Shown piece after piece: positions 1 to 10,568 of a stretch of 11,586 nucleotides of DNA; the first letter of the stretch is position 1; each line of letters opens with the position of its first letter. A model generated the notes under the pieces. That model saw only the letters and a program-made list of their open reading frames with translations. It did no database searches and was not told the origin of the DNA. The translations under genes were made by a program, and so were the position numbers. This DNA comes from Kiloniellales bacterium (GTDB taxonomy: Bacteria; Pseudomonadota; Alphaproteobacteria; Kiloniellales; JAKSBE01). The DNA is taken from the NCBI GenBank assembly GCA_030067055.1, contig JASJAL010000248.1, forward strand, positions 1 through 11,586, written 5' to 3'.

Positions 1-1
1 T

Positions 2-670
2 CTCGAATCCTCGATCAAGAACGCCTACGAGCGGGCAGGGATGGTCAAGACCAACGACGACTCGGTCGGCAGCCTGACCATGATCGGCACCGTCTCGCCT
101 GCCGGCGGCAACTTCGACGAGCCGGTGACCCAGGCGACGCTGTCGACGGTGAAGGACTTTCTCGGCCTGTCCTACGATCGTGCCTACAAGCGCTTCTATC
201 CGGCGGTGGATCCGCTGATCTCCTGGTCACGGTACTTGAAGCAGCTGGAGCCCTGGTTCGACCAGAACGTCGACGTCGGCTGGACCAAGCGGGTCGAGGA
301 AATGCAGGAGCTGCTGCACAAGGGCGAGGGCGTGGCCCAGATGATGCAGGTGACCGGCGAGGAGGGCATCACGACCGAGGATTTCGTGGTCCAGCAGAAG
401 GCGCTCTTCCTCGACATGGTCTACCTGCAGCAGGATGCCTTCGATTCGGTCGATTCCTCGGCATCCCTGGAGCGGCAGAAGCTCACCTTCAACAAGGTCT
501 ACGACCTGGTGACACGGCGCTATAGCTTTGCCGACAAGGAGGCGGTGCGCGACTACTTCACCAAGCTCACGGGCCTCTTCAAGAACTTCAACTACGCGGC
601 GGAAGAGGCGCCCGACTACGGCAGCCTTCTGAAGCAGATCGACGATCTCGCGGCCGGGGCGCCCCAGTGA
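2..670 (+). CDS. ntpA: V/A-type ATPase catalytic subunit A, C-terminal part (5' truncated by window edge)
   Basis: The frame is open from base 2, so the gene begins upstream; an internal Met at 41 is not a credible start. What remains is about 222 residues. The segment YERAG...GSLTMIGTVSPAGG followed by DEPVTQ matches the region of V/A-type ATPase subunit A just after the nucleotide-binding core, where the family has GSITxIxAVSPxGGDxSEPVTQ. The rest is the helical C-terminal domain, including YLQQDAFDSVD, which corresponds to the family's DYLQQNAFDDVD. The Walker motifs would lie upstream of the window. The protein is the catalytic A subunit of the peripheral V1/A1 head, coupling ATP turnover to proton or sodium movement. 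Normally subunit B follows A, but here non-coding DNA follows. The assignment rests on motifs remembered from the family; an F-type beta subunit is unlikely because its C-terminus lacks these motifs. Confidence 0.85.
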   Translation, partial: LESSIKNAYERAGMVKTNDDSVGSLTMIGTVSPAGGNFDEPVTQATLSTVKDFLGLSYDRAYKRFYPAVDPLISWSRYLKQLEPWFDQNVDVGWTKRVEEMQELLHKGEGVAQMMQVTGEEGITTEDFVVQQKALFLDMVYLQQDAFDSVDSSASLERQKLTFNKVYDLVTRRYSFADKEAVRDYFTKLTGLFKNFNYAAEEAPDYGSLLKQIDDLAAGAPQ

Positions 671-717
671 GCCGAGGTGGTCACAGCCGCCCGAATGTCG
701 GATGAGGAACCAGGGTC

Positions 718-738
718 AGGATCGGACTCGTCCTTTTT
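718..738 (+). terminator. Rho-independent-like terminator after the V-ATPase subunit A gene
   Basis: A short stem AGGA(T)CG / CGTCCT with a GACT loop and a single bulged T is followed directly by a run of five T (734-738). It begins 48 bases after the subunit A stop codon. The stem is short, so termination may be partial. Position and T-run suggest that the ATPase transcript ends here and the genes downstream form a separate unit. Confidence 0.5.
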
Positions 739-997
739 GAACTGAGCCGTAGAACCCGATTCGGTCCCTAGCTGCCGCCGGTGCATGAGAAGGTCTCGCC
801 GGTGCCAAAGCCGAACTTCGGATGGGGCGCGAAATCGGCGTGCCATATCATCTGGCATGGGGTGCCGGAGAGGTATTCGCACGCCGTGCCTCAGTGAGCC
901 TATCTTGTTGAATCTTAGATGAAATTGTCCCCGGTCAGCGGTTCAGCAAGGGGTTCCGAAAACTCTCCGGTCGCAGGAAGCGCGGGACGGGATCGCG

Positions 998-1022
998 CCC
1001 CAGAATATTTTGGTTTCTGGGG
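998..1022. repeat. 8-bp perfect inverted repeat (CCCCAGAA / TTCTGGGG)
   Basis: CCCCAGAA (998-1005) and TTCTGGGG (1015-1022) are exact reverse complements around a 9-base AT-rich spacer. As RNA this gives a stable stem followed by TCTTGCTTTCC, which is only weakly U-rich, so it could be a poor terminator. As DNA it could be a dimeric regulator site. It lies about 230 bases upstream of the DUF3141 start codon. Confidence 0.4.
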
Positions 1023-1213
1023 TCTTGCTTTCCTTTCAACGGTCGACCATTTGTTAAGAAGAGCTTATGCTGCATATGCGAGATAGCGTATCAGGTGCGC
1101 GCAAGGGGCGGGTTGAACACTGATCGTAGCGCCTTGAAATAATATAGCGAACTCAAACGCTTAAATTGCTCTTGGTCAGCGCCGGGCGCTGTGATTTAAT
1201 GCCAAGAAGCTTA

Positions 1214-1229
1214 TTTCGCAGATGCGAAA
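1214..1229. promoter_or_regulatory. Palindrome TTTCGCA-GA-TGCGAAA before the DUF3141 ribosome binding site
   Basis: Two perfect 7-base arms flank a 2-base centre. The site ends 11 bases before the AGGAGG ribosome binding site (1241-1246) and 23 bases before the ATG. As DNA it has the form of an operator for a dimeric repressor. As RNA it would form a 6-bp stem with an AGAT loop without covering the ribosome binding site. It does not match the CTGC-N-GCAG form reported for PhaR repressors. The regulator is unknown. Confidence 0.4.
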
Positions 1230-1252
1230 ACCACGAACCGAGGAGGCACGTC

Positions 1253-3595
1253 ATGCCACCGTCAAAATCCGTCGAAAACGCAAAAGGTCAGAAGAAGTCG
1301 ACACCACAGCTGCCGTGGCAGGCCTTCTGGGAGTACTCGACCGATTTCTGGCAGCGGAACGTCCTCTTTGCCGACGTCATGCGGCAGCGCGGCAACCAGC
1401 ACCTGGAGCATATGGCGCAGCCGGTCCAGCACGTCCTCCGCTACGAGTTCGAGAAGGTGATGGACGGCCGCGATCTGCCGCGTCCCGTCAACTACGGGCT
1501 CGTGCGGATCCTTCCGCCCGAAGGGATCGAGCTGGACGACAATAAGAGGCCCTTTGTCGTCGTCGACCCGCGAGCCGGGCACGGTCCCGGGATCGGTGGG
1601 TTCAAGGCCGACAGCCAGGTTGGCGCCATCCTGAAGGCAGGCCATCCCTGCTACTTCATCGGCTTTCTGTCCGATCCCGTTCCGGGCCAGACCATCGAGG
1701 ACGTGGGCAGTGCCGAACTCACGTTCCTGGAGCATGTGGCCGAACTTCACCCGGCGACCGAAGGCAAGCCCTGTGTGATCGGTAACTGCCAGGCGGGCTG
1801 GGCGATCATGATGCTGGCCGCCGTTGCCCCCGACGCGGTAGGCCCGCTCTTGATCAACGGTTCGCCGCTGTCCTACTGGGCCGGCGTGCGCGGCAAGAAC
1901 CCGATGCGCTACACGGGTGGCCTGCTGGGCGGCACCTGGCTGACGGCGCTCTACGGGGACCTCGGGCATGGCATCTTCGATGGCGCCCACCTGGTCTCCA
2001 ACTTTGAGAACCTGAACCCGGCCAACACGCTGTGGAGCAAGCAGTATAACCTCTGGTCCAAGATCGACACCGAACCGGAGCGCTATCTCGAATTTGAGCG
2101 CTGGTGGGGTGGCCATGTACTGCTGACCGACGAGGAGATGCAGTTCATTGCCGACGAACTCTTTGTCGGCAACAGGCTCGTCCAAGGCAAGATGCAGACT
2201 TCGGACGGGCTTGCCATCGACCTGCGCAACATTCGCTCCCCGATCGTGGTTTTCTGCTCCCATGGCGACAACATCACGCCGCCGCAGCAGGCTCTGCAGT
2301 GGATCCTCGATCTCTACGATGACGTCGACGAGATCCGGGCCTACGGTCAAACGCTGATCTACGCGCTGCACCATGATATCGGACATCTGGGAATCTTCGT
2401 GTCTGGCAAGGTGGGCAAGAAAGAGCACACCGAGTTCACCCAGAACATGGACTTGATAGATGTCCTGCCCCCGGGCCTCTACGAAGTCGTGATCCGCGAG
2501 AAGACTGCCGAGGACAGCAACGTCGATCTTGCCCAGGGGGACTACATCGTTTCCTTCGAGGAGCGGACCCTGGACGACATCCGCGCCCTGGGCGAGCAGG
2601 ACAGCGAGGACGAGCGTGCCTTCGAAACGGTGGCTCGCGTCTCGGAGATCAATCAGGGTCTTTACAAGACCTTCCTGTCTCCTGTCGTGCGCGGCGCCAC
2701 CACGGAGCAAAGCGCCAAATGGCTGCGGGAGACGCATCCCGCCCGCCTGCAGTACAGCTTGTTCTCGGACCAGAATCCCCTCATCTCCTGGACCAAGGAG
2801 GCGGCGGAAAAGGTCCGCGCGAACCGCCAGCACGTGCAAGACGACAATCCGTTCCGTATGGCCGAGAAACAGATCTCGGACGGCATTGTCGCTTGGCTCG
2901 ATTCCTGGCGCGAACTGCGTGACCGGACCCAGGAGCAGCTCTTCTTTTCGGTCTACGATTCCGAACTCTTGCAGGCCTTGGTCGGGCTGAAGTCCAGCAG
3001 CGAAGAGCGACGGACGAGGTCCGTAGCCGGCGACCCCGCCCGCGAGGCTCTGGTTCACGAAAAGATCCGGGACCTCAAGCAGAGGATCGGATCGGGCGGA
3101 GCGGCGGAGGCCGCAGTGCGCGCCTTGCTCTACGCTGGGCTGCCCGACGGCCGGGTTGATGAACGTGGCTTCGGCGCCTTGAAGTTGATCCACGAGCAGA
3201 CCCCGCCGGCCGAGCGCTTGGCGCTGGACGAATTCAAGGCGCTGGTCCGTGACCAGTTCTTCATGCTCCTGATCGATGAAGAGGCAGCGATTAGGGCTCT
3301 GCCAGACCTGCTTCCCAAGGACCCGAAGGCGCGTCGCAAGCTCTTCGACGAGGTCTTGTCGGTCTCTACCGCGGCCGGCCCGCCAAGCGAGAAACAACGG
3401 GCCCACCTGCGCGAGCTTGCGACCTGCTTCGGTCTGGACCCCGATGTCGCCGTGGACGGAAGGAAGCTGGAAGTGGTGGCTAAGGACCAGGTTGAATCGC
3501 CTTCCGAGCAGCGGCCCGCGCCGGCGGCGCCGGTCTCCCGGACACCGGCCGCCCGGCCGCGCCGCCGCACCGCTGCGCGACAGCAAACCTCCTGA
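1253..3595 (+). CDS. DUF3141 family protein with PhaC-like alpha/beta-hydrolase core
   Basis: This 780-residue protein fits the DUF3141 family, annotated loosely as poly(3-hydroxyalkanoate) synthase-like. ATG 1253 is chosen because AGGAGG (1241-1246) lies 6 bases upstream; the frame stays open further upstream to 1166 but without such a site. The hydrolase core spans about residues 85-400. The nucleophile box is GNCQAGW with Cys179, close to the PhaC box G-x-C-x-G-G. The likely triad partners are Asp339 in HGDNITPP and His378 in IGHLG. Residues about 400-600 are a family-specific region. About 601-735 is helical and acidic, perhaps TerB-like. The last 25 residues are Pro/Ala/Arg-rich and probably disordered. 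No signal peptide or membrane segment is seen, so it should be cytosolic. It is the first gene of the operon with the phosphotransacylase, kinase and FabI. Whether it polymerises, hydrolyses or transfers acyl groups cannot be told; the intact triad argues for activity. Confidence 0.9.
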   Translation: MPPSKSVENAKGQKKSTPQLPWQAFWEYSTDFWQRNVLFADVMRQRGNQHLEHMAQPVQHVLRYEFEKVMDGRDLPRPVNYGLVRILPPEGIELDDNKRPFVVVDPRAGHGPGIGGFKADSQVGAILKAGHPCYFIGFLSDPVPGQTIEDVGSAELTFLEHVAELHPATEGKPCVIGNCQAGWAIMMLAAVAPDAVGPLLINGSPLSYWAGVRGKNPMRYTGGLLGGTWLTALYGDLGHGIFDGAHLVSNFENLNPANTLWSKQYNLWSKIDTEPERYLEFERWWGGHVLLTDEEMQFIADELFVGNRLVQGKMQTSDGLAIDLRNIRSPIVVFCSHGDNITPPQQALQWILDLYDDVDEIRAYGQTLIYALHHDIGHLGIFVSGKVGKKEHTEFTQNMDLIDVLPPGLYEVVIREKTAEDSNVDLAQGDYIVSFEERTLDDIRALGEQDSEDERAFETVARVSEINQGLYKTFLSPVVRGATTEQSAKWLRETHPARLQYSLFSDQNPLISWTKEAAEKVRANRQHVQDDNPFRMAEKQISDGIVAWLDSWRELRDRTQEQLFFSVYDSELLQALVGLKSSSEERRTRSVAGDPAREALVHEKIRDLKQRIGSGGAAEAAVRALLYAGLPDGRVDERGFGALKLIHEQTPPAERLALDEFKALVRDQFFMLLIDEEAAIRALPDLLPKDPKARRKLFDEVLSVSTAAGPPSEKQRAHLRELATCFGLDPDVAVDGRKLEVVAKDQVESPSEQRPAPAAPVSRTPAARPRRRTAARQQTS

Positions 3596-3651
3596 GCGCG
3601 CGACGGAAGCCCTTCCGCACCGCGCAAACAGGATCTTTGAGTGAGGACGCC

Positions 3652-4626
3652 ATGAACGACATGGAAGCCCAGAGGCACGACGACCACTGGAAACACCGGG
3701 GCGAGAAGTACAGGCGCTTGATCGCCGAGACCAAGGAGTTGCCGGTCATCGGAACCGTGGTCGTCCACCCCTGCGAACGCTCCGCCTTGGAAGGCCCGCT
3801 CGACGCCGCGAAGGCCGAGATCATCGAGCCGATCCTGGTCGGTCCGAGGCGGAAGATCGAGGCGGTCGCCGCCGAGCACGATCTGGACATTTCGGCCTGC
3901 GAGATCGTCGACGTGCCGCACAGCCATGCGGCTGCCCAGCGCGGCGTCGAACTCGTGCGTGAGGGGCGCGGCGAGGTCCTGATGAAAGGCAGCCTTCACA
4001 CCGACGAACTGATGCGGGCGGTGCTCAGCAGCGCTGCCGGGCTGCGCACCGAGCGGCGGGTGTCCCATGTCTTCGCCATGGACGTGCCCAGCTACCCCAA
4101 GCCGCTGTTCGTCACCGACGGGGCGGTCAATATCTTTCCCGATCTCGCGGCCAAGGTCGATATCGTCCAAAACGCGATCGATATGGCCATCGGGTTGAAG
4201 GTCGAGGAGCCAAAGGTCGCGATCCTCTCGGCGATGGAGACCGTGAATCCCAAGATCCCCTCGACCGTGGAAGCGGCAGCGCTGTGCAAGATGGCCGAGC
4301 GGGGACAGATCACCGGCGGATTGCTCGACGGCCCGCTCGCGCTCGACAATGCGATCAGCCTGGAAGCCGCCGAGGTCAAGAAGATCAAGTCTCCGGTGGC
4401 GGGCCAGGCCGACATACTGGTGGTGCCCGACCTTGAGGCCGGCAACATGCTGGCGAAGAACCTGACTTTCATGTCGGGGGCCTATGCCGCCGGTATCGTG
4501 CTTGGCGCCCGGGTGCCGATCGTCCTGACCAGCCGCGCGGACTCCTTGGAGACCCGCATGGCGTCCTGCGCCGTGGCCGCGCTCTACGCAATGGCCTTGC
4601 GGGCAAAGAAGCCGGTTTCGGCCTGA
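3652..4626 (+). CDS. Phosphate acetyl/butyryltransferase (PTA_PTB family)
   Basis: It would catalyse acyl-CoA + phosphate = acyl phosphate + CoA in the cytosol. The protein has 324 residues from ATG 3652, preceded by GAGGA at 3643-3647; TTG 3637 would add five residues but lacks a good site. PTA_PTB features run the full length: an early VVHPCERSALEG segment, FVTDGAVNIFPD in the middle, AILSAMETVNPKIPST, GQITGGLLDGPLALDNA, and the C-terminal VVPDLEAGNMLAKNLTFMSGA beginning near residue 257. The N-terminal MaoC-type hydratase domain found in many longer relatives (bifunctional enoyl-CoA hydratase/phosphate acetyltransferase) is absent; only about 30 residues precede the core. The gene starts 56 bases after DUF3141 and ends 2 bases before the kinase. 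Pairing with a kinase supports function; whether acetyl, propionyl or butyryl groups are preferred is not visible. Confidence 0.9.
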   Translation: MNDMEAQRHDDHWKHRGEKYRRLIAETKELPVIGTVVVHPCERSALEGPLDAAKAEIIEPILVGPRRKIEAVAAEHDLDISACEIVDVPHSHAAAQRGVELVREGRGEVLMKGSLHTDELMRAVLSSAAGLRTERRVSHVFAMDVPSYPKPLFVTDGAVNIFPDLAAKVDIVQNAIDMAIGLKVEEPKVAILSAMETVNPKIPSTVEAAALCKMAERGQITGGLLDGPLALDNAISLEAAEVKKIKSPVAGQADILVVPDLEAGNMLAKNLTFMSGAYAAGIVLGARVPIVLTSRADSLETRMASCAVAALYAMALRAKKPVSA

Positions 4627-4628
4627 CC

Positions 4629-5822
4629 ATGTCGGACACGATCCTCGTCCTCAATGCCGGCTCGTCGAGCATCAAGTTCCAGCTCTTCGCGATCGAAGAG
4701 GGAGCGCTGTCGCGCCTGTTCAAGGGTCAGGTCGAAGGCATCGGTGCGAAGCCGCGCCTGACGGCAAAGGATGCCGAAGGCGCACCTCTCGTCGATACCG
4801 CCTTCGAACCGTCGGAGGTTGCCAATCTGCCGAGCGCCCTGGCGATTCTGCGGGACTGGCTCGGCGAGCGCCTTGCCGGGAACCTGCCGATCGCGATCGG
4901 CCATCGCGTGGTTCACGGTGGACCGAGCTTCGACCAGCCGGTCCTGATCGACGACGCGGTTCTCGAAGAGCTTGAGCGCTTCGTCTCGCTGGCGCCCCTG
5001 CACCAGCCAAATAATCTCGCGCCGATCAAGTCGATCCGAGAGCTCCTGCCCGACATCCCGCAGGTCGCGTGCTTCGATACGGCCTTTCATCGCAATCACG
5101 GCGAGCTTGCGGATCGATTTGCGCTTCCCGGCCACTTTTACGACATGGGAGTACGCCGCTACGGCTTCCACGGCCTGTCATACGAATACATCGCGGGTGT
5201 GCTGCCGGAAGTGGCGCCGGAGATCGCCTCGGGCCGGGTGATTGCCGCCCACCTGGGCAGCGGTGCTTCGCTCTGCGCCATGAAAGGCGGGCGCAGTGTC
5301 GACAGCACGATGGGGTTCACCGCACTCGACGGTCTCCCAATGGGCACGCGTCCTGGGCAGCTCGATCCGGGTGTCGTTCTCTTCCTCATCTCGCACGAAG
5401 GCATGAGCCCGCAGGACGTGGAGCGCCTGCTCTACAAGGATAGCGGTCTGAAAGGTCTGTCCGGCATCAGCAACGATGTCCGCGACCTGCTGGCGAGCGA
5501 GGAGCCCGGTGCCCGCCTGGCTCTCGACTATTTCGCGTATCGGGCCGCCAAGGAGATCGGCGCATTGACCGCGGTACTCGGTGGTCTCGACGCCCTCGTC
5601 TTCACCGCCGGGGTCGGCGAGAACGCGCCGGAGGTGCGCCAGAGCATTTGCGAGCGTCTTGCCTGGCTGGGCGTTGCAGTGGATGACGAGGCCAATCTTA
5701 AGAACGCTACGGAAATCAGCCGGAAGGGCTCTAGACCCTTGGTCTATGTCGTTCCGACCGACGAGGAGCTCATGATTGCAACCCATGCGTTGCGCCTCGT
5801 CGACACCAGCGCCGTGGCCTGA
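4629..5822 (+). CDS. ackA: Acetate/propionate family kinase
   Basis: This 397-residue kinase interconverts acyl phosphate + ADP and carboxylate + ATP. Signature segments are present: VLNAGSSSIKFQLF at the N-terminus (Asn9), GHRVVHGG (Arg93), FDTAFH (Asp150), YGFHGLSYEYIA (His181), GLPMGTRPGQLDPG (Arg241), FTAGVGENAPEVR and TDEELMIA (Glu379/380). By eye these align with the catalytic residues of characterised acetate kinases (Asn7, Arg91, Asp148, His180, Arg241, Glu384 of the Methanosarcina enzyme). The substrate-pocket proline before the LEGL segment of that enzyme is replaced by alanine (Ala232 in GFTALDGL), and HNPxN reads HQPNN; both look typical of an alphaproteobacterial subtype. The start lies 2 bases after the previous stop with no clear ribosome binding site, which suggests translational coupling to the transferase. 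Confidence 0.95.
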   Translation: MSDTILVLNAGSSSIKFQLFAIEEGALSRLFKGQVEGIGAKPRLTAKDAEGAPLVDTAFEPSEVANLPSALAILRDWLGERLAGNLPIAIGHRVVHGGPSFDQPVLIDDAVLEELERFVSLAPLHQPNNLAPIKSIRELLPDIPQVACFDTAFHRNHGELADRFALPGHFYDMGVRRYGFHGLSYEYIAGVLPEVAPEIASGRVIAAHLGSGASLCAMKGGRSVDSTMGFTALDGLPMGTRPGQLDPGVVLFLISHEGMSPQDVERLLYKDSGLKGLSGISNDVRDLLASEEPGARLALDYFAYRAAKEIGALTAVLGGLDALVFTAGVGENAPEVRQSICERLAWLGVAVDDEANLKNATEISRKGSRPLVYVVPTDEELMIATHALRLVDTSAVA

Positions 5823-5838
5823 TTGACGAGGTTTGACG

Positions 5839-6645
5839 ATGTCTGAGCGGAAAGAAGATCGGATTTTCACACCGGAAGCCCTGACGCTGGAAGGCAAGAA
5901 AGGCCTGGTCATCGGGATCGCAAACGATCAGTCGATCGCCTATGGCTGCGCCAAGGCCTTTAAGGCCCTCGGGGCGGAAGACCTGGCGATCACCTATCTG
6001 AATGAGAAAGCGAAGCCCCATGTCCAGCCGCTCGCGGAGGAACTCGAGGCCGGGATCTTTATGCCGCTCGACGCCCGCGTCGACGGCCAAATGGAAGAGG
6101 TTTTTGGAGAGATCGAGCACCGCTGGGGGCGGCTCGACTTCGCCTTGCACTCGATTGCCTTCGCGCCGAAAGAGGACCTGCAAGGCCGGCTGACCGACTC
6201 CTCTCGCGACGGATTTCTGCTTGCCATGGACGTCTCCTGCCATTCCTTCATCCGGATGGCGCATTTGGCGGAGCCGCTGATGAAGGATGGCGGCGCCCTG
6301 TTCACCATGAGCTACTACGGTGCCGACAAGGTGATCGAGAACTACAACCTGATGGGGCCGGTCAAGTCCGCGCTGGAATCGGCAACCCGGTATCTGGCCT
6401 GGGAGCTTGGACGCAAGGGTATCCGGGTGCTCGCGATCTCTCCGGGACCTCTGAAGACGCGCGCCGCCTCGGGTATCAAGGACTTCGACGAGTTCCTCGA
6501 CCGAGCTACGGCCGAGGCACCGGCCGGCCAGTTGGTCACGATCGAAGACGTCGGAATCGCCTGCGCGGGCCTTGCGACGGATGCCTCCAAGCTGATCACC
6601 GGGAAGACCGTCTACATCGACGGTGGCCTGCATATCATGGGGTAA
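5839..6645 (+). CDS. fabI: Enoyl-[acyl-carrier-protein] reductase, FabI type
   Basis: FabI reduces trans-2-enoyl thioesters with NAD(P)H in the last step of fatty-acid chain elongation. ATG 5839 (268 residues) is preferred over TTG 5833 because ACGAGG (5826-5831) lies 7 bases upstream. The nucleotide-binding segment is GIANDQSIAYG near residue 30. HSIAFAPKEDLQGR and MDVSCHSF follow. The catalytic pair is Tyr169 and Lys176 (Y-x6-K), with a second conserved Tyr159 ten residues earlier as in E. coli FabI (Tyr146/Tyr156/Lys163). ISPGPLKTRAASGI and the C-terminal GKTVYIDGGLHIMG are typical of the family. It is the last operon gene, 16 bases after ackA. Placement with phosphotransacylase and kinase, rather than with fatty-acid synthesis genes, suggests a dedicated role, perhaps on short-chain enoyl-CoA or enoyl-ACP. 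That role is inference; it could also be the housekeeping copy. Confidence 0.93.
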   Translation: MSERKEDRIFTPEALTLEGKKGLVIGIANDQSIAYGCAKAFKALGAEDLAITYLNEKAKPHVQPLAEELEAGIFMPLDARVDGQMEEVFGEIEHRWGRLDFALHSIAFAPKEDLQGRLTDSSRDGFLLAMDVSCHSFIRMAHLAEPLMKDGGALFTMSYYGADKVIENYNLMGPVKSALESATRYLAWELGRKGIRVLAISPGPLKTRAASGIKDFDEFLDRATAEAPAGQLVTIEDVGIACAGLATDASKLITGKTVYIDGGLHIMG

Positions 6646-6653
6646 AAGACCAA

Positions 6654-6678
6654 AGGGTTGAGCCGGATCGGCAACCCT
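6654..6678 (+). terminator. Hairpin after fabI, probable operon end
   Basis: AGGGTT pairs with AACCCT, and inside a bulged GA the arms GCCG and CGGC close a GAT loop. It starts 8 bases after the fabI stop. No T-run follows (GTAAGG), so it is either a factor-dependent terminator or a 3'-end stabilising stem. Confidence 0.45.
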
Positions 6679-6959: not shown

Positions 6960-7385
6960 GTGCCGCTGCCGATGACCGTCTTCGATCGCTTCTGCCGGGC
7001 CTTGGCAATGCCCCTGGCCTTGGTCGTTCTCTTTGTTTCCCTACCGATCAACGTGGCTCAGGGCGCAATGGTCACGACCGACCAGGTTCTGGCCGAGAGC
7101 CAGACCGAGTCGGACCGGGCGCGCGTGCTCGATTTCCTGGCCCGGGAGGATGTGCGGCAGCAGATCGAGGCCTTCGGGGTCGATCCGGACGAGGCAGCCC
7201 TCCGGGTGCAGAGCCTTTCCGACGTGGAGATCGCGAAAATCGTCCATCAGATGGACCAGGAACCGGCGGGTCAGAGTACTGTCTTGGTCATCCTTGGCGC
7301 CGTGATTCTGATTATCTTCCTGATCTTCATCATCACGGACTTGACCGGGGCAACCGACGTCTTTCCCTTTATCAATCCAATCTGA
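6960..7385 (+). CDS. PA2779-family small membrane protein
   Basis: The protein has 141 residues from GTG 6960, or 137 from ATG 6972. GGAGG at 6943-6947 is rather far from either start, so the start is uncertain. The N-terminus has a hydrophobic signal-like stretch ending INVAQGAMV, with plausible cleavage after AQG or QGA. The middle is predicted soluble and helical, with the family-like REDVRQQIEAFGVDPDEAALRVQSLSDVEI segment split across residues of about 60-90. A strong membrane helix (STVLVILGAVILIIFLIFII) lies near residues 108-127, followed by a short tail. Expected topology: periplasmic domain anchored near the C-terminus in the inner membrane. Family membership is recalled from sequence pattern and from the next gene being PA2778-like, the order seen in other proteobacteria. 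No biochemical function is known to me. Confidence 0.8.
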   Translation: MPLPMTVFDRFCRALAMPLALVVLFVSLPINVAQGAMVTTDQVLAESQTESDRARVLDFLAREDVRQQIEAFGVDPDEAALRVQSLSDVEIAKIVHQMDQEPAGQSTVLVILGAVILIIFLIFIITDLTGATDVFPFINPI

Positions 7386-7399
7386 GGACGGTGCCCTGG

Positions 7400-7415
7400 C
7401 CCGAGATGCCTCGGG
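7400..7415 (+). other. Intercistronic hairpin CCCGAG-ATGC-CTCGGG
   Basis: A perfect 6-bp stem with a tetraloop starts 15 bases after the PA2779-like stop. An outer GCC/GGC pair may extend it across small internal loops. It is not followed by T residues, so an RNA-stability or attenuation role between the two genes is more likely than full termination. Confidence 0.35.
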
Positions 7416-7538
7416 AAGGCGCGGAATTAACTGACCTCTCCGCGCGAACATCGATCTGGACGGCAGGCCCCGATGTCCCTAGAGACGTCTAAACACACGA
7501 GGCTCCCGCCAAGGTCTCGACTCCCCGGACCCGAGCGA

Positions 7539-8489
7539 ATGGAATTTCGCAGGGCCAGAAGGCCTGGTCGAACGGTCCGCCGGCTAGCTGTCATGGTGCT
7601 TGCCGCTGGACTGGCCGGCTGCGCAGCGACGCAGACCGAACAACTTCTTGAGCAGCCGGGCGACCTGCCGCCGCAGGCGGAAATTGCGGAGGTGCCATTC
7701 TTCCCGCAGGAGCGCTACCACTGCGGTCCGGCGGCACTTGCCATGGTGCTGGCCTGGTCCGGGCTTCCGGTGACGGCGGAGGATCTGGTGTCGCAGGTTT
7801 ACACGCCCGGGCGCGAAGGCACGCTCCGCAGCGACATCTTGAGCGGATCCCGCCGCAACGGACGATTGGCGGTCGAGGTCCGGCAGCTGGAAGCGCTGCT
7901 CTCTGAAATCGCGGCAGGGCATCCGGTCCTGGTTTTTCAGAACCTCGGGCTCGACGTCTTGCCTCAATGGCACTTCGCCGTCGCGGTCGGATACGACCTG
8001 CGCGGCCCAACGATCATCCTCCATTCCGGCACCGAGGCCAGGCGGAGCGTTGCCCTGGCGACCTTCGAGCGGACCTGGCGGCGCGGTGACTTCTGGGCGC
8101 TGGCCGTGCTGGCGCCCGATCAAATTCCCGTGAGCGCAGGCCAGAGGGACGTGGTTGAAGCCGCCGCCGGGCTCGAACGGGCCGGGCAACTGTCCGAGGC
8201 CGAGACCGCCTACACGACCGCGCTCGCCCGCTGGCCGGAGAGCCATACCGCTCTCATGGGGTTGGGTAATACGCGCTTCGCGAGAAAGGATGCCACAGGC
8301 GCTGAGGCCGCCTATCGGAGAGCGATCGAGCTGCGCCCAAGCGCGGCGGAGGCCTGGAACAACCTCGCCTATGCCTTGAAGGCGCTCGGCCGCCGGTCCG
8401 AGGCAATCTCCGCTGCTCAACGGGCAGTTGCGCTGGGAGACGCTCGGACGTCGCGCTATCGAGACAGCCTGGAGGAGATCAGGGAGTAA
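7539..8489 (+). CDS. PA2778-family lipoprotein: C39-like cysteine peptidase with TPRs
   Basis: ATG 7539 gives 316 residues with an ordinary lipoprotein signal: basic MEFRRARRPGRTVRR, then LAVMVLAAGLAGC with the lipobox Cys28. The frame is also open from ATG 7473, preceded by GGCAGG, but that adds 22 residues ahead of the signal. The peptidase domain covers about residues 48-205. QERYHCGPAALAMVL carries the probable nucleophile Cys62 with its CGPAAL context, and PQWHFAVAVGYD carries the probable catalytic His145. LHSGTE follows, where C39-like enzymes place the third residue. Residues about 215-310 contain tetratricopeptide repeats (AETAYTTALARWPES, AEAAYRRAIELRPSAAEAW, AISAAQRAVAL). It should be lipid-anchored and face the periplasm. 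The gene follows the PA2779-like one, suggesting a functional pair. The substrate is unknown; C39 relatives that cut double-glycine leaders belong to ABC exporters, and no ATPase domain is present here. Confidence 0.85.
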   Translation: MEFRRARRPGRTVRRLAVMVLAAGLAGCAATQTEQLLEQPGDLPPQAEIAEVPFFPQERYHCGPAALAMVLAWSGLPVTAEDLVSQVYTPGREGTLRSDILSGSRRNGRLAVEVRQLEALLSEIAAGHPVLVFQNLGLDVLPQWHFAVAVGYDLRGPTIILHSGTEARRSVALATFERTWRRGDFWALAVLAPDQIPVSAGQRDVVEAAAGLERAGQLSEAETAYTTALARWPESHTALMGLGNTRFARKDATGAEAAYRRAIELRPSAAEAWNNLAYALKALGRRSEAISAAQRAVALGDARTSRYRDSLEEIRE

Positions 8490-8655: not shown

Positions 8656-9003
8656 TTAGACGGCTTCACTCATACGGCACGCACCGGCAGCCGGGGGCCA
8701 TTCCGGCAGGGCCTCGATCACCTCTGGAAAACTCGGGCCCTCCGCCAGCAAGTTCTGGCCATAGAGCGGACAGCAGTAGGAGAGGACGTAGGTTCCACCC
8801 AAGCGTTTCAATTTAAAGACTGTTTCGCCCTCGGGTTCGCTTAGAATCTCGGCGTAGGCATCACCGCCGTCGCTCCTAAGGTGGGCAAGGTGCCCGGCAA
8901 TGCCGCGGCTGAGGCGCCGGCGGCAGATCGTCTCGAGGGCGTCGATGTCTTCTCGCGAGAGGCCGTTGGGGTCCAGGGTAGTCAGGACCATTGCCGCGGT
9001 CAT
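8656..9003 (-). CDS. Hypothetical protein, 115 residues
   Basis: I do not recognise this family. It is likely a real gene because the minus-strand start ATG (9003-9001) is preceded by GGAGGT (9012-9007) 3 bases upstream, a near-ideal Shine-Dalgarno sequence, and no other good gene occupies the region. The product looks soluble, without signal peptide or membrane segment. A helical Arg/His-containing part (about residues 15-45) is followed by strands around ETVFKLKRLGGTYVLSYCC and then CPLYGQNLLAEGPSFPEVIEALP. It has four Cys: one near residue 27, the adjacent pair near 77-78, and one near 108. Adjacent cysteines could bind metal or form disulfides, but no standard motif is seen. It converges on the PA2778-like gene and is divergent from the ABC importer genes. 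Confidence 0.65.
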   Translation of the reverse strand: MTAAMVLTTLDPNGLSREDIDALETICRRRLSRGIAGHLAHLRSDGGDAYAEILSEPEGETVFKLKRLGGTYVLSYCCPLYGQNLLAEGPSFPEVIEALPEWPPAAGACRMSEAV

Positions 9004-9458: not shown

Positions 9459-10568
9459 TTGGACGCCAAATCCACGTCACACGGCGAAGACGCCATCGTG
9501 CGCTTCGAGCGAGTGCAGAAGAGCTATGACGGCACCTTGCTCGTGGTCAAGGATCTCGACCTTGCGGTCCAGCGGGGCGAGTTTTTGACGCTGCTCGGAC
9601 CCTCGGGTTCGGGTAAGACCACGGTCCTGATGATGCTGGCTGGCTTCGAGACGGCGACCCACGGCGGCATCTTTCTGAACGGCGAGCCGATCAACAACGT
9701 GCCGCCGCACAAGCGCGGGATCGGCATGGTGTTCCAGAACTACGCCCTGTTTCCCCACATGTCCGTCGCCGAGAACCTGGCCTTTCCGCTGGAGGTGCGG
9801 CGAATCTCCAAGGCCGGGATCGAGGAGAAGGTCCGCCGCGCGCTGGAAATGGTGCGCCTTGGCGGCTTCGAGCACCGCCGGCCGGGTCAGCTGTCCGGCG
9901 GCCAGCAACAGCGCGTCGCTGTCGCCCGGGCCCTGGTCTTCGAACCGGATCTGGTCCTGATGGACGAGCCCTTGGGCGCCCTGGACAAGAATCTCCGCGA
10001 AGAGATGCAGTACGAGATCAAGCACATCCACGAGAACCTGGGCGTTAGCATGGTCTATGTCACCCACGACCAGTCTGAAGCGCTGACGATGTCTAACCGG
10101 ATCGCCGTGTTCAATGACGGCCGGATCCAGCAGCTCGCGGCGCCGGACGACCTCTACGAGCGCCCGGAGAACGCCTTCGTCGCTCAGTTCATTGGCGAGA
10201 ACAACCGATTGAACGGCCAGGTCAGCCAGCTCAACGGAGTTTCCTGCTTGGTCGACCTCGACGATGACGGCGGCAGGGTCGAGGCCTTGGCGGTCAAGGT
10301 CGCCGGAGAGAAGGAGCGTACGACCTTGTCGCTGCGCCCGGAACGGGTTGCCATCAATCCAGAGGAGGGGGCCCTTCCAAACATATTCGAGGCCCGCGTT
10401 CAGGAGTTGATCTACCTGGGCGACCACATCCGGACTCGGGTGAACCTCTGCGGCAAGGACGATTTCATCATCAAGGTTCCCAACGCTCAGGGCCATGCCA
10501 CGCTACGCGAAGGCGAGACGGTGCGTGTCGGCTGGGCGCTGGAGGATTGCAGGGCGTTGGATGCCTGA
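9459..10568 (+). CDS. ABC transporter ATP-binding protein, PotA-like (polyamine-type importer)
   Basis: This 369-residue ATPase would power import of the ligand bound by the downstream periplasmic protein. TTG 9459 is preceded by AGGGA (9449-9453) at 5-base spacing; no ATG is available before the conserved core, and GTG 9498 is an alternative. Motifs: Walker A GPSGSGKT (residues 47-54), Q-loop Gln93 in [11 protein letters not shown], signature LSGGQQQR (145-152), Walker B LVLMDEP (165-171), D-loop GALD, and switch His203 in VTHDQSEA. Residues from about 275 form a TOBE-type regulatory domain ([10 protein letters not shown]). Length and layout match PotA and related spermidine/putrescine-type ATPases rather than amino-acid transporters, which are about 100 residues shorter. 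The binding protein gene follows after 131 bases, and permease genes are expected beyond the window. The exact substrate is not determined. Confidence 0.92.

What the first reader, a model, noticed from the sequence alone, without database searches (positions are those of the whole stretch)
1253..6645. Four-gene operon: PhaC-like DUF3141 protein, phosphotransacylase, acyl kinase and FabI
The genes are co-directional with gaps of 56, 2 and 16 bases, preceded by a long non-coding region and followed by a hairpin. The known reactions connect: FabI consumes reducing power on an enoyl thioester, the transferase and kinase convert acyl-CoA to free acid with ATP gain (or the reverse), and the PhaC-like triad enzyme handles acyl thioesters or polyester. 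I infer a module that balances acyl-CoA, NADH and ATP, or that activates free short-chain acids for polymer or membrane synthesis. I recall this gene set from other proteobacteria, but know of no described joint function.
Basis: partly seen in the sequence, partly recalled or inferred. Interest (0 to 1): 0.75.

Follow-up and report, generated by a model that had tools for sequence, protein, structure and literature searches.

The report
Conserved PhaC-like/pta/ack/fabI operon
This is a widespread proteobacterial operon, already described in rhizobia as phosphate-starvation induced, whose four enzymes probably trade acyl-CoA from the storage-polymer pool against short-chain acids and ATP when respiration is limited.

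Summary
Four co-directional genes (DUF3141, Ptb-like Pta, acetate-family kinase, a FabI paralogue) lie at 1253-6645 with gaps of 56, 2 and 16 nt. The hairpin after fabI is no stronger than chance. The grouping is far beyond chance: in a draw of 398 phylum genomes the operon-type FabI occurs in 20 of 27 genomes with DUF3141 and 22 of 371 without, and 17 of 27 DUF3141 neighbourhoods carry all three partners, in several orders. 20 of 20 related genomes tested hold further FabI copies.

The set is not undescribed: S. meliloti ORF-pta-ack-fabI (co-transcribed, PhoB-regulated), B. diazoefficiens blr3456-blr3459 (PhaR-repressed), Burkholderia phaC-pta-ack-fabI. DUF3141 is predicted to have a PHA-synthase-like fold, which a published classification also says, with a conserved Cys-Asp-His set and an extra helical domain. 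Some related operons fuse a hydratase to Pta. FNR-like boxes precede 16 of 43 related operon loci, but not this one.

Best reading: a PHA-linked acyl-CoA/short-chain-acid exchange module for low oxygen or low phosphate. Direction, substrates and DUF3141 activity are unproven. Ordinary as a gene set; open as biochemistry.

The parts
671..1252 (+). Long leader without a convincing gene; presumed promoter region. No FNR/FixK or PHO box above chance here
1253..3595 (+). DUF3141 protein (780 aa): predicted PHA-synthase-like alpha/beta hydrolase with conserved C179/D339/H378, plus C-terminal helical domain (residues about 600-735)
3652..4626 (+). Phosphotransacylase of the PRK11890/Ptb-like type (324 aa from ATG 3652), without the hydratase half found fused in some relatives
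4629..5822 (+). Acetate/propionate-family acyl kinase (397 aa); residues aligned to the recalled catalytic positions of acetate kinase 1g99 are identical
5839..6645 (+). FabI paralogue of the PRK07533 type (268 aa), Y169 and K176 conserved
6654..6678 (+). Inverted repeat/hairpin after fabI; not a canonical terminator and not stronger than shuffles

Best explanation
The operon is a proteobacterial (probably alphaproteobacterial) member of the known orfA(DUF3141)-pta-ackA-fabI family. It exchanges acyl-CoA linked to the polyhydroxyalkanoate (PHA) pool with free short-chain acids. The Ptb-like transferase and the kinase turn acyl-CoA + Pi + ADP into free acid + CoA + ATP, or the reverse. The extra FabI spends NADH on an enoyl thioester, most likely crotonyl-CoA made from (R)-3-hydroxybutyryl-CoA by a MaoC-type hydratase that is fused to Pta in some related operons and would be encoded elsewhere here. 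DUF3141, a PhaC-like Cys-His-Asp enzyme, moves hydroxyacyl groups between CoA and a polymer or other acceptor. Low oxygen or low phosphate would call it up. Shown here: gene set, conservation, predicted fold, conserved residues, hydratase-Pta fusion in relatives. From papers: regulation in rhizobia. Inferred: substrates, direction, DUF3141 activity, regulation in this organism.
For: Operon-type FabI co-occurs with DUF3141 in 20 of 27 against 22 of 371 genomes, and Pta in 19 of 27 against 46 of 371 (from; the centre genome G001, chosen because it holds the operon, is one of the 27). 17 of 27 neighbourhoods hold all partners, including permuted and divergent orders. The hydratase-Pta fusion family NF006045 scores 590-708 bits (cut-off 282) over nearly its whole length in the four long Pta proteins scanned, of seven seen. 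PHA synthases fill ranks 1-7 of the structural comparison. C179 kept in 106 of 107 rows (one gap), D339 and H378 in 107 of 107. Further FabI copies in 20 of 20 genomes. blr3456-blr3459 listed as induced in a B. diazoefficiens phaR mutant in microoxia, 7.2 in both value columns. Pta and AckA up 118-228-fold in NGR234 bacteroids. A phaC gene stands beside fabI, bi-pta and ackA in Cobetia/Halomonas and beside pta, ack and fabI in Burkholderia. FNR-type boxes upstream in relatives.
Against: No box of either kind in this window and no hydratase among the nine window proteins scanned. Pta scores below the phosphate butyryltransferase cut-offs (TIGR02706 314 against 410.5), so the acyl chain is not assigned. 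9 of 27 DUF3141 neighbourhoods carry none of the three partners (two of them, on one genome, near contig ends). PHA synthases lead other hydrolases by only 0.5-1.6 Z, and H378 lies in a low-confidence segment (376-388) of the model. The phaC products of the Burkholderia clusters share only 2-24% identity with the S. meliloti ORF, so phaC and DUF3141 are at best distant counterparts. In B. diazoefficiens PhaR is reported to activate fixK2, so induction in the phaR mutant does not itself support FixK control.
Confidence: 0.5

Rival explanations
1. Assimilation direction: kinase and Pta activate external acetate, propionate or butyrate to acyl-CoA, which feeds PHA synthesis with DUF3141 as an auxiliary synthase; FabI is a side activity.
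For: This is the suggestion made in print for the phaC-linked clusters (passages). Both enzymes are reversible (general knowledge).
Against: FabI would remove, not supply, precursors of 3-hydroxyacyl-CoA (inference). In the B. diazoefficiens phaR mutant the operon goes up while PHB goes down (passages).
Confidence: 0.25
2. Phosphate-starvation device: the operon recovers Pi and ATP and sets acetyl phosphate, and FabI supports lipid remodelling; PHA is incidental.
For: S. meliloti operon up-regulated by phosphate starvation through phoB (passages citing Summers 1999; abstract recalled).
Against: PHO boxes are near expectation upstream of relatives (8 of 81 at 3 mismatches or fewer, about 4 expected) while FNR-type boxes are enriched (26 of 81 against about 1). 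Hydratase fusion and neighbouring phaC point to acyl-CoA chemistry.
Confidence: 0.15
3. Loose cluster: four genes with independent roles that travel together.
For: DUF3141 without partners in 9 of 27 neighbourhoods; the FabI-Pta pair without DUF3141 in 8 genomes.
Against: Association odds ratio 45 (FabI) and 17 (Pta) across 398 genomes; kept through permuted and divergent orders. Tests not corrected for phylogeny.
Confidence: 0.07

Closest known systems
Sinorhizobium meliloti ORF(orfA)-pta-ackA-fabI operon (Summers, Denton, McDermott 1999; cited passages seen, paper not held)
   Same: Same gene set and order; the Sinorhizobium loci L012 and L036 have DUF3141 as the first gene.
   Different: PhoB control is reported there; no PHO box above chance in this window. 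S. meliloti itself was not compared here.
Bradyrhizobium diazoefficiens blr3456-blr3459 (PMC10888616, passages)
   Same: Hypothetical protein, pta (blr3457), ackA (blr3458) and blr3459 as a predicted operon; Bradyrhizobium loci here have DUF3141-pta-ack-fabI.
   Different: Repression by PhaR is inferred there from expression, with a predicted site; nothing comparable tested here.
phaC-pta-ack-fabI clusters of Burkholderia s.l. (PMC8231600, passages) and phaC1-fabI-bi-pta-ackA of Cobetia/Halomonas (PMC8686332, passages)
   Same: Pta, Ack and FabI beside a PHA-synthase-like gene.
   Different: Those have a phaC gene (2-24% identity to the S. meliloti ORF in Burkholderia) and a hydratase-Pta fusion (Burkholderia group D1, Cobetia/Halomonas); the window has DUF3141 and an unfused Pta.
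DUF3141 (PF11339) as placed in an alpha/beta hydrolase classification (PMC11878206, passages)
   Same: DUF3141 is grouped there with PHA synthase 5hz2, with Cys in place of Ser.
   Different: No function of the operon is discussed in the passages seen.
Clostridial butyrate branch (Ptb-Buk)
   Same: Phosphotransacylase plus acyl kinase on acyl-CoA (general knowledge).
   Different: Kinase here is acetate/propionate family (TIGR00016 363 bits; butyrate kinase models 52-81).

Membership tests
orfA-pta-ackA-fabI operon family | Four genes in this order, co-directional, short gaps | tested here: met
   same order in 35 of 80 related loci
orfA-pta-ackA-fabI operon family | Co-transcription | not testable with these tools
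   Needs RNA; gaps of 56, 2, 16 nt are suggestive only
orfA-pta-ackA-fabI operon family | PHO box upstream (S. meliloti; recalled) | tested here: inconclusive
   Best window match has 4 mismatches, as common as expected by chance
PHA synthase (PhaC) | Alpha/beta hydrolase fold | tested here: met
   Predicted model only; best matches are PHA synthases, tied with or just above other hydrolases
PHA synthase (PhaC) | Cys-Asp-His triad with the Cys in a G-x-C-x-x-G box | tested here: inconclusive
   GNCQAG with C179, and D339, H378, conserved; equivalence to PhaC positions is by motif order and recall, not by a residue-level superposition; H378 is in a low-confidence segment
PHA synthase (PhaC) | Curated PhaC family score | tested here: not met
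   TIGR01836 31.4 bits against cut-off 365.3; no PhaC_N Pfam hit at E <= 0.001
PHA synthase (PhaC) | Polymerase activity | not testable with these tools
   Needs an enzyme assay
Phosphate butyryltransferase | Curated cut-off | tested here: not met
   TIGR02706 314.2 against 410.5 bits; also below PRK05805 (326 against 399) and PRK07742 (282 against 409)
PRK11890 phosphotransacylase subfamily | NF008852 cut-off 413 | tested here: met
   513.5 bits
PRK08190 bifunctional enoyl-CoA hydratase/Pta | Both halves present | tested here: not met
   Window Pta passes the score (508 against 282) but covers only profile positions 156-464, the Pta half
FabI of the PRK07533 type | NF005717 cut-off 337 | tested here: met
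   438.3 bits
PRK07058 acetate/propionate kinase equivalog | NF005462 cut-off 486 | tested here: inconclusive
   485.3 bits, just below; TIGR00016 subfamily met, 362.8 against 293.4

The most novel reading that the evidence does not exclude
A storage-polymer fermentation module: DUF3141 releases (R)-3-hydroxybutyryl-CoA from PHB by thiolysis, a MaoC hydratase makes crotonyl-CoA, the extra FabI acts as an NADH-dependent crotonyl-CoA reductase, and Pta/Ack make butyrate and ATP, so that respiring proteobacteria ferment PHB to butyrate in microoxia.
Probability: 0.18. Interest if true: 0.72.

Novelty: new member of a known kind. Interest (0 to 1): 0.36.

Why it matters
The gene set is widespread (DUF3141 matches at E <= 1e-60 in 27 of 398 phylum genomes) and strongly regulated in rhizobia. 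The listings, and the passages I opened, showed no biochemical assay of DUF3141; most papers listed there were not opened. If the polymer-to-acid reading is right, it gives respiring bacteria a way to draw ATP and redox balance from PHB with little oxygen, and gives DUF3141 a testable function.

Tried and rejected
Housekeeping FabI: rejected for relatives (20 of 20 genomes hold one or two further FabI copies at 40-47% identity against 63-69% for the copy most like the window's); not testable in the window's own genome. In A. brasilense (L072) no fabI lies in the fetched locus although the genome has the operon-type copy.

Burkholderia lxa low-oxygen locus as the parallel: passages did not show these genes; dropped. 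Rfam: no match in the window at gathering scores. PDB sequence search with the DUF3141 profile gave only a 33-position match to a lipase at E 0.13.

C-terminal domain: Foldseek top match is 2h5n, TM 0.52 but E 0.07, and a phmmer match to 2ou3 (named tellurite resistance protein of COG3793) at E 0.76. That these share a TerB-like fold is recalled from SCOP. Suggestive only.

Two similar leader stretches at 925 and 1166 (TTG-N8-CAG) were judged chance by a rough count of my own, not by a call.

FNR box test: gene starts are those of the longest ORFs, related species are not independent, and the pattern was chosen, so the two are not independent. In one search a 700-nt gap limit placed L013, L017, L043 and L072 among 'DUF3141 alone' although partners lie further off. 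In one search I set aside larger clusters as antisense or overlapping frames by their coordinates and sequence, without a separate test. In one search FabI hits at or under 220 bits were dropped before the residue count.

Full report
Observation. The four genes are present as described: DUF3141 1253-3595, pta 3652-4626, ack 4629-5822, fabI 5839-6645, gaps 56, 2 and 16 nt, with AGGAGG before the first ATG. Upstream lies a 582-nt stretch without a convincing gene. The downstream hairpin is real as an inverted repeat but no stronger than shuffled sequence (z -0.61), has no T-run, and is not in the terminator list.

Conservation. Of the best 80 related loci (chosen by DUF3141 similarity, hence biased), 35 have the same order with gaps under 700 nt, 15 more have partial or permuted sets, and 30 count as DUF3141 alone (7 of these cut short downstream; 4 others have partners further off). 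Clustering all ORFs of these loci, the four families are the only ones in more than 17 loci once antisense and overlapping frames are set aside. In a draw of 398 phylum genomes around G001, DUF3141 (E <= 1e-60) occurs in 27, FabI over cut-off in 42, Pta over cut-off in 65. Overlap with DUF3141: FabI 20 of 27 against 22 of 371 (odds ratio 45, p 1e-16), Pta 19 of 27 against 46 of 371 (odds ratio 17, p 8e-11), not corrected for phylogeny; G001 itself, chosen for its operon, is among the 27. FabI and Pta lie within 9 kb in 25 of the 33 genomes that have both, 8 of these 25 without DUF3141. The 27 DUF3141 places of the draw other than that of G001 were fetched, from 26 genomes: 17 hold pta, ack and fabI, 1 holds fabI only, 9 hold none. 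Orders vary: duf-pta-ack-fabI, duf-pta-fabI-ack, fabI-duf-pta-ack, duf-ack-pta-fabI, and divergent pta-ack/duf-fabI. A set that stays together while its order changes argues for joint function.

FabI is an extra copy in relatives: 20 of 20 genomes examined, of the 80 loci available, hold two or three FabI at E <= 1e-30, one at 63-69% identity to the window's and the others at 40-47%.

Hydratase link. In 57 loci with a Pta protein, 7 have one of 430 aa or more. [quoted passage not shown] Pfam MaoC passes its own cut-off in 2 of these 4. Minor recurrent neighbours over 107 loci, each named from one representative, are GNAT (20 loci), CoA-transferase subunits (18 and 16), a protein without Pfam match (17), AI-2E transporter (16) and MaoC (14).

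Regulation. Upstream of DUF3141, FNR/FixK-like boxes with at most one mismatch occur in 26 of 81 regions, about 1 expected from shuffles; PHO boxes are near expectation. With other gene leaders of the same loci as control: 20 of 75 DUF3141 leaders against 71 of 871 others; 16 of 43 when three or more operon genes are present, 0 of 25 for DUF3141 alone. The window has neither box, so this says nothing direct about it.

Literature (passages only). PMC8231600 describes phaC-pta-ack-fabI clusters and a phaJ-pta fusion in Burkholderia and likens them to the S. meliloti ORF-pta-ack-fabI operon, co-transcribed and up-regulated by phosphate starvation through phoB, although the first genes share only 2-24% identity. 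PMC5789663 reports four such genes, shared by the Burkholderia and Rhizobium strains studied, induced about 2-fold by Mimosa root exudate. PMC10888616 lists blr3456-blr3459 among genes induced in a phaR mutant in microoxia, 7.2 in both value columns, with predicted PhaR sites. PMC3732241 reports NGR234 Pta and AckA up 118-228-fold in bacteroids. PMC8686332 describes phaC1, fabI, bi-pta and ackA together. Summers et al. 1999 was not held; what I know of it beyond these citations is recalled. That blr3456 and the S. meliloti ORF are DUF3141 proteins is inferred from gene order in their relatives.

Interpretation. The recurring chemistry, hydroxyacyl-CoA to enoyl-CoA (hydratase), enoyl to acyl (FabI), acyl-CoA to acid + ATP (Pta, Ack), next to a PhaC-like enzyme and under PHA- or oxygen-linked control in relatives, favours exchange between the PHA pool and short-chain acids with ATP and redox balance. 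The release direction is my preference; the suggestion in print is assimilation of acids into PHA. As a gene set the finding is a new member of a known kind.

Noticed in passing
window 1-670 (+): C-terminal part of a V/A-type ATP synthase subunit A, cut by the window edge; no B subunit gene lies between it and the operon.
   Followed up: no
window 6960-8489 (+): Pair of PA2779-family and PA2778-family (C39 peptidase plus TPR) proteins, co-directional, downstream of the operon.
   Followed up: no
window 9459-10568 (+): PotA-like polyamine ABC transporter ATPase (TIGR01187 368 bits, over its cut-off).
   Followed up: no
window 8656-9003 (-): 115-aa ORF on the minus strand with no Pfam or NCBIfam match at E <= 0.001 (scanned in the plus-strand coordinate range given with strand '-').
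   Followed up: no
window 3020-3457 (+): Helical C-terminal domain of DUF3141 outside most of the Pfam model, conserved in relatives; weak resemblance to 2h5n and 2ou3.
   Followed up: partly
L002, L005, L035, L052, L054, L082 upstream of DUF3141: FNR/FixK-like boxes before the operon in several proteobacteria, suggesting oxygen control.
   Followed up: partly
L086 and L088: Operon split into divergent pta-ack and DUF3141-fabI halves.
   Followed up: partly
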